From positions 1,181,001-1,245,000 of the forward strand of contig CP027241.1 in the NCBI GenBank assembly GCA_002999035.1: 64,000 nt of DNA, given 5' to 3'. Positions within the stretch are counted from its first letter, which is position 1. Every line of letters starts with the position of its first letter. Origin of the DNA: Lachnospiraceae bacterium oral taxon 500 (GTDB lineage: Bacteria > Bacillota > Clostridia > Lachnospirales > Vallitaleaceae). Position numbers and translations under genes: made by a program. Shown here piece by piece: positions 12,492-58,827 of the stretch. The notes under the pieces are model-generated. The model saw only the letters and a list, made by a program, of their open reading frames with translations. It had not been told where the DNA came from and searched no databases.

Positions 12492-12540
12492 CAGTTCAGG
12501 CAAGCGAAGTTATGGTTGGAGTGTGCAAAGAGCTTGCCTG
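12492..12540 (+). repeat. Family A repeat, short degraded copy
   Basis: Left end AGTTCAGGCAAGC (12493-12505) and right end GCTTGCCTG (12532-12540) form an inverted pair about 26 nt apart, directly after the T run of the tRNA-operon terminator. It resembles the intact small copy at 32161-32198. Confidence 0.6.
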
Positions 12541-32155: not shown

Positions 32156-32160
32156 GCGTC

Positions 32161-32198
32161 CAGTTCAGGCAAGCAGATGGTAATGCTTGCCTGAACTG
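32161..32198 (+). repeat. Family A repeat, minimal copy
   Basis: Perfect 14-bp inverted repeat CAGTTCAGGCAAGC (32161-32174) and GCTTGCCTGAACTG (32185-32198) around a 10-nt loop, then TAA. It carries the two ends of the larger copies at 42292 and 56118 without their internal hairpins. Confidence 0.8.
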
Positions 32199-32222
32199 TA
32201 ATTTTTTGGTTGTTATTTATTC

Positions 32223-42286: not shown

Positions 42287-42291
42287 TCTAA

Positions 42292-42540
42292 AATTCAGAC
42301 AAGCAGAAAGTTATGTATGATACTGCTCGGGAAAGCTTGCTTTCACAGGCAGTATCATACATAACTTTCTATTTGCGGAACGCACACACCCAGAATTCGC
42401 TGTAAGCGAATTCTGGGTGGCTTGCCTGAGCGAACGCTATCTATAGCGGATAATTATATATGATACTACTCTGGGGAGCTTGCTCTCCCAAGGGATATCA
42501 AGTGCAGCTATCCATTTGCGGTGGCTTGTCTGAACTGTAA
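42292..42540 (+). repeat. Family A structured repeat, large copy 1
   Basis: Ends AATTCAGACAAGC (42292-42304) and GCTTGTCTGAACT (42524-42536) are inverted. Inside: a perfect 22-bp hairpin (42305-42326 with 42349-42370), a constant ATTTGCGGAA box (42371-42380), a perfect 14-bp hairpin (42388-42401 with 42405-42418), an internal GCTTGCCTGAG, then a weaker long hairpin beginning GGATAATTATA and a second ATTTGCGG box. It is the reverse-orientation counterpart of 56118-56403 and follows the small-RNA terminator by about 6 nt. No gene. Confidence 0.8.
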
Positions 42541-42599: not shown

Positions 42600-42706
42600 A
42601 TGCGTTTCTGTTTGGACGGGCGGCCTGCCCTGATCGAACGCTCCGCTTTCTGCCGGGCGGGCAAGCTGCCAGAAAAGACTGTTCTGACAAATATAGGAAA
42701 GTTAAG
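42600..42706 (+). repeat. Family B repeat fragment
   Basis: The core CCTGATCGAACGCTCC with CTGCCGGGCGGGCAAGCTGC resembles the intact copy at 27556. The right end AGACTGTTCTGACAAATA followed by GGAAAGTTAAG is preserved. It lies just before the lipoprotein gene. Confidence 0.55.
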
Positions 42707-56023: not shown

Positions 56024-56117
56024 ACAAACTCCTTTCCATGTATTTTGCCAAAAATTGTGTTTGTCTGCTTTATCATACCCGATTCAGCCGGATTTGAAAA
56101 GGGGAAAAGAAAAAAAG

Positions 56118-56403
56118 TTACCGTTCAGGCAAGCCGCTGATAATTCGCAGTAAGTGAATTATCAGCATGTTCCGCAAATGGAAAGTTACGCTTGATATGC
56201 CTTTGGTGAGCAAGCTCCTCCCGGTGTATCAAGTGTAACTTTCCGCTATAAATAAAGTGTGTTCAGGCAAGGCACCCAGAATTCGCTGGCGCGAATTATG
56301 GGTGTGTGCGTTCCGCAAATGGATAATTACATAGGATACTGCCTGTGAAAGCAGGCTTTCCCGAGCAGTATCCTATATAATTATCCGCTTGCCTGAACTG
56401 TAA
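56118..56403 (+). repeat. Family A structured repeat, large copy 2
   Basis: 286 bp between TTACCGTTCAGGCAAGC (56118-56134) and GCTTGCCTGAACTGTAA (56387-56403), 16 of 17 bases inverted. Two modules, each short hairpin + TTCCGCAAATGG box + long hairpin. First: 56136-56148 with 56154-56166, box at 56170, long arms 56180-56197 with 56227-56244. Second: 56274-56286 with 56291-56303, box at 56311, long arms 56321-56342 with 56365-56386 (one mismatch). An internal GTTCAGGCAAG joins them. No gene. Oppositely oriented to 42292-42540. Confidence 0.85.
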
Positions 56404-56538
56404 GCAAAATGAATGTTTTTTTGATGGAACTTGCATTTTCTGCTTCAAAAGAAGAAGTGCTAAAAATGAGAAAATGAAAGAAACGGCATTTTTTCGGGGG
56501 TGAAAGATTTAAAATTAAAAATGGCTTGCAAGTTTTCC

Positions 56539-56853: not shown

Positions 56854-58827
56854 ATGAAGAAAGTTTTATCATTGCTGATGGCGCTGGCGCTGGTCGTATC
56901 GCTGGCAGCCTGCGGCGGTCAAACTAAGACTGATCAAGGCAAGACCGACACGAACAACACCCAGCAGACCGATACCAAAGACAATAAGGACACACAGACC
57001 CCGGCTGACCAATCGGCGCCGAAAAAGGTAATCAGTCTGATTGAGACTTCCAATATCCCGACCATGGTTTCGTGGTTGGCGACCGACAGCGTTTCGTTTG
57101 GAATTATGGGTAATATCACATCCGGTTTGTTTATCATGAATGATGAAGGTGCAGTGACCCCGGAATTGGCTAAGGATTTTGAAGTGTCCGAAGACGGTTT
57201 GACTTATACCTTCCATTTAAGAGATGCTGACTGGGTAACGGTTGATGGCGAGGTTTACGGTCCGGTTACGGCTCAGGATTTTGTGTATCCGATTAAGAAG
57301 ATTTTGGATCCGAAGGAAGCTTCGCAGTATGCTTTCATGATTCAAACCGCCGGCATTAAAAACGGTGCGGCAGCGGTTGCTTTATCGGAGGGCTTGGTTG
57401 CTTATGAAGGTAACCTTTCCAAGCTTGAAAACATGAAAGTTACCGATTTTAAGGATACGGATACTCAGACCGCTCAACAGCAGTTTGATGCAGCAAAAGC
57501 ATCCTTAGAAGAAAAAATCAAAGCGGAAGAGGCTGAATTTGTTGGTCAGTACGGTTCTATTGAAAAGGCCAATGAGGCAATATATGACCTGATTGAGAAC
57601 ATCGGCGTGACCGCAGTTGATGAAAAGACGCTTAAGTTCGAACTGGAAAACCCGGTTCCGTACTTCCAGTCCGTTTTGACTTTCCCGTCTTTCGGGCCGG
57701 TTAACCAAAAGTTTGTGGAAGAAAAAGGTGAAAAATACGGCAGCAGTGTAGACAATCTGCTCTACAACGGACCGTTTATTTTCAAAGAATGGAAAGTATC
57801 ACAAAGACATTACCTGGAAAAGAACCCGAAATACTGGGATGCTGAAAACGTTAAGCTGGACGGCATTGATTACCGTGTCATCGAAGGCGTTGACAACGAT
57901 ACCGTAGTTAATATGTATTTGGACGGACAGCTTCATACTGCTGGCCTTGCCGGTGAAAATGTAGAAAAGTACGGCAATCGTCCGGACGTTGTTACCTATG
58001 AAGAAGGTGCGATGTTCTACATTCAGATGAATCAGGGTCAGGGCGAGCCGACCGCAAATAAGAAAGCTTTGGCTAACCCGAAGGTTAGAAAGGCCTTGAA
58101 CATGGCAGCGGATAAGGAATATATCAGCAAGACTGTACTGGCTAACGGTTCGTTGAATGCTGATTATCTGGTGCCGGTTGGACTGCAGGTCAGTGAAAAG
58201 CATGACAACAAGGACTTCCGGAAGGTAGCTGCCGACTTGTATAATGGCGAGCAGGGCTATAACAGCTATAATGTCGAAGAAGCCAAAAAGTTGTGGGCGG
58301 AAGCCAAGCAAGAATTAGGCATTGATAAGCTGGAACTGGAATTATTGCTGTTCCAGGCGGAAACTTCCAACAGCATCGGTACGCATTTGAAAAATGAATG
58401 GGAAAAGAACTTAGAGGGCTTTAGCCTGGTTTTGAAACCGTTGCCGTTCTCCGAGAAAATCGGACGGGCAAACCGCGGCGACTACGAGCTGGACTTTTCC
58501 GGCTGGGGTCCGGACTTCCCGGATGCGGTTACTTTCTTGGATATGTGGATCACCAACGGCGGCCACAACAACACCGGTTATTCCAATCCGGAATATGATG
58601 CGATTATCACTTCGGTGAAATCCGGTGAATTGACTGCTATTGATAAGGTGAAGGAAAGATTTGAAGCTATGGTCAAAGCAGAAAAGATCCTGCTGGAAGA
58701 TGATCAGGTTATTATGCCGATCTTCCAGAGAGGGCGGACGGGTCTGCGTGATCCGAAGATCACAGGCTGGAGATTGCAGCTGTTTGGACCGGACTTTATC
58801 TTTAAGTATGTTGATTTGACAGAATAA
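56854..58827 (+). CDS. oppA: Oligopeptide ABC transporter substrate-binding lipoprotein OppA
   Basis: 657 residues, long for the family. Lipoprotein signal with Cys20 in SLAACGG, then a Thr/Asp/Gln-rich linker (~23-55). The SBP_bac_5 (DppA/OppA) fold follows: GAVTPELAKDFEVSEDGLTY, TFHLRDADWVTVDG, GPVTAQDFVYPIKKILDPKE, ALNMAADKEYISKTVLANG and DLDFSGWGPDFPDAVTFLDM-like text near the C-terminus. An insert of about 40 residues (~195-235) is unusual. Followed by a strong terminator, so later genes may be less expressed. Confidence 0.92.
   Translation: MKKVLSLLMALALVVSLAACGGQTKTDQGKTDTNNTQQTDTKDNKDTQTPADQSAPKKVISLIETSNIPTMVSWLATDSVSFGIMGNITSGLFIMNDEGAVTPELAKDFEVSEDGLTYTFHLRDADWVTVDGEVYGPVTAQDFVYPIKKILDPKEASQYAFMIQTAGIKNGAAAVALSEGLVAYEGNLSKLENMKVTDFKDTDTQTAQQQFDAAKASLEEKIKAEEAEFVGQYGSIEKANEAIYDLIENIGVTAVDEKTLKFELENPVPYFQSVLTFPSFGPVNQKFVEEKGEKYGSSVDNLLYNGPFIFKEWKVSQRHYLEKNPKYWDAENVKLDGIDYRVIEGVDNDTVVNMYLDGQLHTAGLAGENVEKYGNRPDVVTYEEGAMFYIQMNQGQGEPTANKKALANPKVRKALNMAADKEYISKTVLANGSLNADYLVPVGLQVSEKHDNKDFRKVAADLYNGEQGYNSYNVEEAKKLWAEAKQELGIDKLELELLLFQAETSNSIGTHLKNEWEKNLEGFSLVLKPLPFSEKIGRANRGDYELDFSGWGPDFPDAVTFLDMWITNGGHNNTGYSNPEYDAIITSVKSGELTAIDKVKERFEAMVKAEKILLEDDQVIMPIFQRGRTGLRDPKITGWRLQLFGPDFIFKYVDLTE

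What the first reader, a model, noticed from the sequence alone, without database searches (positions are those of the whole stretch)
56118..56403. Two-module nested-hairpin repeat (family A) with a constant TTCCGCAAAT box
The element has inverted ends and two modules, each a short hairpin, a constant unpaired box, then a long hairpin. The copy at 42292-42540 has the same parts in reverse order. The arm sequences differ between copies and modules but stay complementary, while the box stays fixed. That pattern suggests selection on structure: a mobile hairpin element, a structured RNA or a protein-bound cruciform. It encodes no protein. I do not know a described element with this layout.
Basis: seen in the sequence. 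Interest (0 to 1): 0.78.

Follow-up and report, generated by a model that had tools for sequence, protein, structure and literature searches.

The report
Modular hairpin MITE of gut Lachnospirales
The repeat is one of about 70-90 copies of a small, protein-less jumping DNA element that folds into a four-armed hairpin cross and leaves 8-base target duplications in related gut bacteria; it is a new family of a well-known kind of bacterial mini-transposon.

Summary
Window 56117-56404 is a two-module palindromic repeat that folds far better than chance, and the copy at 42292-42540 is the same element on the minus strand, with its first module truncated. A covariance model finds 91 modules in 74 places in this genome, and relatives in other families of the order, including named Lachnospiraceae. 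One correction: the "constant unpaired box" TTCCGCAAAT is mostly the 3' half of a third hairpin (TGCG-TTC-CGCA). In other species the same position is GGGC/GCCC, TTTGGC/GCCAAA or GGAT/ATCC, so it covaries. Each full module is therefore a four-way junction: a terminal inverted repeat stem plus three hairpins. The copies are transposed DNA. In G381, G350 and G393 the termini GTAACAGTTCAGCCATGC...GCATGGCTGAACTGTTAC are flanked by direct 8-bp repeats (11 of 47 perfect, 0.09 expected; 17 with at least 7/8, 0.35 expected). Sister species lack the insert at orthologous sites. In this genome the duplications are mostly decayed, so copies are old. Helices show no G.T excess over A.C, arguing against selection on a transcript of the canonical strand. 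Best reading: a non-autonomous DDE element (MITE), possibly served by an IS66-type transposase (8-bp A/T-rich duplication, GTAA ends); that partner was not found.

The parts
56109..56116 (+). left flank 8-mer GAAAAAAA, position of a target-site duplication
   Evidence: 5 of 8 identical to the right 8-mer; register set by other species
56117..56134 (+). left terminal inverted repeat GTTACCGTTCAGGCAAGC (junction stem P1, 5' side)
   Evidence: pairs with 56387-56404
56135..56167 (+). module 1 hairpin P2
56170..56179 (+). module 1 box TTCCGCAAAT (P3 stem is weak in this CATG variant of the module)
56180..56244 (+). module 1 long hairpin P4 with inner stem around GAGCAAGCTC
56245..56260 (+). inter-module linker GCTATAAATAAAGTGT (replaces the right terminal repeat)
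   Evidence: same architecture in other arrays
56261..56272 (+). module 2 left repeat GTTCAGGCAAGG
56273..56304 (+). module 2 hairpin P2
56321..56386 (+). module 2 long hairpin P4
56387..56404 (+). right terminal inverted repeat GCTTGCCTGAACTGTAAG (P1, 3' side)
56405..56412 (+). right flank 8-mer CAAAATGA, position of the duplication
42292..42540 (-). second copy: complete module 42289-42435, then long hairpin 42447-42521 of a truncated module with its own end at about 42520-42537
32159..32200 (.). 42-bp remnant: two terminal repeats only

Best explanation
It is an old copy of a non-autonomous, cut-and-paste-type insertion element (a MITE). A transposase supplied in trans recognises the 18-bp terminal repeats and inserts the element into A/T-rich DNA with an 8-bp target duplication (duplication shown in relatives; transposase inferred). 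Between the ends lie three hairpins which, with the paired ends, form a four-way junction. Modules can be tandemly multiplied ([left end-P2-P3-P4-linker]n-right end). In this genome the copies sit mainly between genes, often just upstream of a co-oriented gene's ribosome site, so many are probably co-transcribed and may change mRNA folding and stability (inferred). The terminal GTAA and 8-bp A/T-rich duplication make an IS66-family transposase the leading candidate partner (inferred, about 45%).
For: 8-bp duplications at the GTAAC...GTTAC boundary in three other genomes: 11/47 perfect v 0.09 expected, 17/47 with >=7/8 v 0.35, permutation z 9.2, A+T 0.85. Same register is best in this genome (z 3.7; two copies 7/8, 0.04 expected). 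Element absent at orthologous sites: window locus in both congeners; glnS, soj, hrcA, glgA and mraY-ftsW regions; G381 v G396. 91 modules at 74 places here, none in congeners G001 and G002. One element lies inside P2 of another (L035). Same ends and fold in Mediterraneibacter, Merdimonas, Scybalocola and other Lachnospiraceae. No coding capacity. IS66 elements of gut Firmicutes show GTAAGC ends and 8-bp A/T-rich duplications.
Against: No autonomous element with these ends was found; the IS66 examples share only GTAA with them. In this genome duplications are mostly decayed, and G350 alone shows no clear one (z 2.0). A DDE transposase needs only the ends, so the conserved internal hairpins are not explained. 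The CAAA on the P4 flank (27/46) without a mirror on the other flank (2/46) is not explained.
Confidence: 0.85

Rival explanations
1. A structured RNA or 5'-UTR regulator: the fold is kept because the transcript must fold.
For: Covariation; copies lie in the sense orientation of the downstream gene 49:22 and some lie between promoter and ribosome site, e.g. before soj and glnS.
Against: G.T does not exceed A.C on that strand, whereas RNA helices tolerate G.U; the element is absent at orthologous genes of sister species; no Rfam match.
Confidence: 0.1
2. A single-strand (IS200/IS605, REP/RAYT-type) element inserted 3' of TTTG without duplication.
For: Hairpin-rich ends; one-sided conserved CAAA/TTTG (27/46 v 2/46); no exact duplications in this genome.
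Against: Clear 8-bp duplications in relatives; the only TnpA-like gene found here is a broken ordinary IS200; no GTAG tag.
Confidence: 0.04
3. An integron/attC-like or site-specific recombination cassette.
For: Folded ends and tandem modules.
Against: Target duplication, no cassette genes, no array at one locus, dispersed single copies.
Confidence: 0.01

Closest known systems
BOX elements of Streptococcus pneumoniae (PMC3049150)
   Same: small interspersed, intergenic, strongly folded, modular with variable numbers of an internal module, no autonomous partner identified
   Different: different host group and module plan; here each repeated module carries its own left end and three hairpins, and an 8-bp duplication is measured; sequences were not compared
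EFAR of Enterococcus faecalis (listed as a MITE in PMC3733652; details from memory, the paper was not available)
   Same: variable-length, modular, palindromic miniature insertion sequences of a Firmicute
   Different: as remembered, EFAR inserts into stem-loops with loss of target sequence; here an 8-bp duplication; no sequence comparison was possible
RUP, ERIC, NEMIS/Correia MITEs (PMC3049150, PMC3733652)
   Same: about 100-160 bp, terminal inverted repeats, no gene, folded when transcribed, near genes
   Different: from memory these duplicate TA; here 8 bp, and tandem modules
IS66 family
   Same: terminal GTAA and 8-bp A/T-rich duplication (L273, L278, L280)
   Different: IS66 ends read GTAAGC..., these read GTAACAGTTCAGCC...; no tnpABC genes in the element
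REP/BIME with RAYT (PMC8266576, PMC3733652)
   Same: dispersed intergenic palindromes
   Different: REPs are 20-50 nt with a GTAG tag; these are 130-550 bp with terminal repeats and duplications

Membership tests
MITE (non-autonomous DDE element) | terminal inverted repeats | tested here: met
   18 bp
MITE (non-autonomous DDE element) | target-site duplication of fixed length | tested here: met
   8 bp in relatives; weak in own genome
MITE (non-autonomous DDE element) | no coding capacity, short, many dispersed copies | tested here: met
MITE (non-autonomous DDE element) | empty orthologous sites | tested here: met
   exact junction legible only for L092
MITE (non-autonomous DDE element) | autonomous partner with the same ends | tested here: inconclusive
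   none among the end positions nor in viral contigs; whole-genome search not exhausted
IS66-derived MITE | 8-bp duplication | tested here: met
IS66-derived MITE | ends beginning GTAAGC(G) | tested here: not met
   GTAAC here v GTAAGC in L273, L275, L277, L278, L280
IS200/IS605 or REP/RAYT | no target duplication, tetranucleotide target, GTAG tag for REP | tested here: not met
Rfam RNA family | match above the gathering score | tested here: not met
functional structured RNA | G.U pairs in excess of A.C mismatches | tested here: not met
BOX elements | boxA-boxB(n)-boxC sequence modules | not tested
   no BOX sequence was compared; only the layout was read from PMC3049150

The most novel reading that the evidence does not exclude
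The internal three-hairpin junction is itself required: the transposase or a host factor reads the folded single strand or cruciform, giving a kind of insertion element that combines DDE-type ends and an 8-bp duplication with structure-dependent recognition, and whose modules can be multiplied. The fold is kept across families while nearly every base of the arms changes.
Probability: 0.15. Interest if true: 0.7.

Novelty: new member of a known kind. Interest (0 to 1): 0.45.

Why it matters
It defines a repeat family shared by several families of gut Clostridia, with measured ends, target duplication and structure, that no held paper or Rfam family describes. Copies lie just upstream of core genes (glnS, soj, mraY-ftsW) of one species and not of its sisters, a natural experiment on how inserted hairpins alter expression. 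The strand-symmetric covariation is a reminder that covariation alone does not show an RNA function.

Tried and rejected
Rfam at gathering and permissive thresholds: only chance eukaryotic microRNA/snoRNA hits over the element. Phages and plasmids: no copy; viral contigs: none. Y1 transposase: only a broken ordinary IS200 and a hit in a CRISPR region. I first read the one-sided CAAA and the lack of exact duplications in this genome as an IS200/IS605-type signature; the G381/G350/G393 flanks overturned that. MAFFT on the wide set misaligns the long hairpin, so folds were done per sequence. Relatives of gut IS66 transposases in viral contigs: nothing usable. Literature searches by sequence and by description found no matching element.

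Full report
OBSERVATION. The sequence at 56117-56404 has the inverted ends and two modules described. The second module folds into four helices on either strand with z about -12 against shuffles. The copy at 42292-42540 lies on the other strand and its outer module is truncated. The box occurs 45 times in the 3.2-Mb genome against 13 for the reversed control. A covariance model (R1) built from 19 modules gives 136 hits, which reduce to 91 modules at 74 places, 12 of them with two to four modules. The lowest-scoring of these are uncertain.

ANATOMY. Canonical order: left terminal repeat, hairpin P2, hairpin P3, an unpaired (A/T)AT, long hairpin P4 with an inner stem around AGCNNGCT, right terminal repeat. 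Tandem copies repeat [left end-P2-P3-P4-linker], and only the last module has the right end. The box is the 3' half of P3 plus the unpaired AAT. Across species P3 reads TGCG/CGCA, GGGCG/CGCCC, TTTGGC/GCCAAA, TATACGGC/GCCGTATA or GGAT/ATCC, so the box is fixed only within this genome's subfamily, and variants such as TTAAGCAAAT occur even here.

RELATIVES. Two congeners and 19 other members of the same family gave no hit. In 392 genomes of the order nine, this one included, had hits at E<=1e-6, with only eight candidates scored per genome; in 398 genomes sampled from the phylum only this one did, with seven scored. A pattern built from the ends found copies in named Lachnospiraceae. The layout and terminal repeat agree (GTAACAGTTCAGCCATGC there, GTTACAGTTCAGGCAAGC here).

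COVARIATION AND LEVEL OF SELECTION. 28 of 48 pairs have double changes here and 44 of 48 in 21 elements of other species (fitted alignment, so somewhat favourable). The kept pairs are almost all Watson-Crick. Counting mismatches without favouring wobble pairs gives 28 G.T and 52 A.C in 72 long hairpins of this genome, and 11 and 19 in 22 of other species; one search agrees. A fold selected in a transcript of the canonical strand should show the opposite, so the complementarity is maintained at the DNA level, or on the other strand, or by arm-to-arm repair. These cannot be told apart here.

MOBILITY. Congeners lack the element at the window locus and around glnS, soj, hrcA, glgA and mraY-ftsW; their intergenic DNA is too diverged for exact junctions. 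G396 lacks the copy that G381 carries in L092. One copy lies inside another (L035). Flanks of 47 copies in G381, G350 and G393 carry direct 8-bp repeats at exactly GTAAC...GTTAC; G350 alone shows none clearly (z 2.0). In this genome the best register is the same, but only three copies keep 6-7 of 8 bases. This is the signature of a DDE transposase, and the copies here are old.

PARTNER. No element with these ends and a gene was seen. IS66 elements in gut Firmicutes have GTAAGC ends and 8-bp A/T-rich duplications: ACTAAATC in L273, CTAAAAAC in L278, GATAAACT in a Butyrivibrio plasmid; Pfam confirms the IS66 transposase in L272, L275 and L278. Shared with the element: GTAA, duplication length and composition. 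Not shared: the rest of the repeat. IS66 is therefore a lead, not an assignment.

CONTEXT AND LIKELY EFFECT. In canonical orientation the downstream gene is co-oriented 49 times and opposed 22 times (simple ORF calling), and several copies sit 18-30 bases before a start codon. 49 of 74 copies point with the leading strand, which may only reflect gene orientation. The window copy lies between a divergent 154-aa gene and an oligopeptide-binding-protein-like gene at 56854 (gene name judged by eye). Gene names glnS, soj, hrcA, glgA, mraY-ftsW were likewise read from the protein sequences. Effects on expression are inferred by analogy with BOX, ERIC and REP and were not tested.

COMPARISON. By function and anatomy it is a MITE; layout is closest to BOX and, from memory, EFAR. 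It fails the REP/RAYT and IS200/IS605 tests, and one of the two IS66 tests.

Noticed in passing
window 32159-32200: 42-bp mini-derivative made of the two terminal repeats only; single ends also at 12493 and 58915.
   Followed up: partly
L035 1960-2250: One copy inserted into hairpin P2 of another copy.
   Followed up: partly
window about 42660-42700; L006, L010, L122, L139: A second dispersed repeat containing GACTGTTCTGACGAACATGGGAAAGTTGAGTAAAT-like sequence near several copies.
   Followed up: no
G000 flanks: CAAA at fixed distance on the P4 side in 27/46 copies but TTTG on the other side in only 2/46; unexplained.
   Followed up: partly
L049, L051, L053: The weaker relatives in one distant genome (G038) seem to lie next to T-box-like leaders of genes (read by eye).
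   Followed up: no
L046 1390-1722; L047: A broken IS200-type transposase; cas2- and csn2-like genes (type II CRISPR) elsewhere in the genome, judged by eye.
   Followed up: no
L028, L005, L099: Arrays of three to four modules, with truncated right ends inside the array, in two bacterial families.
   Followed up: partly
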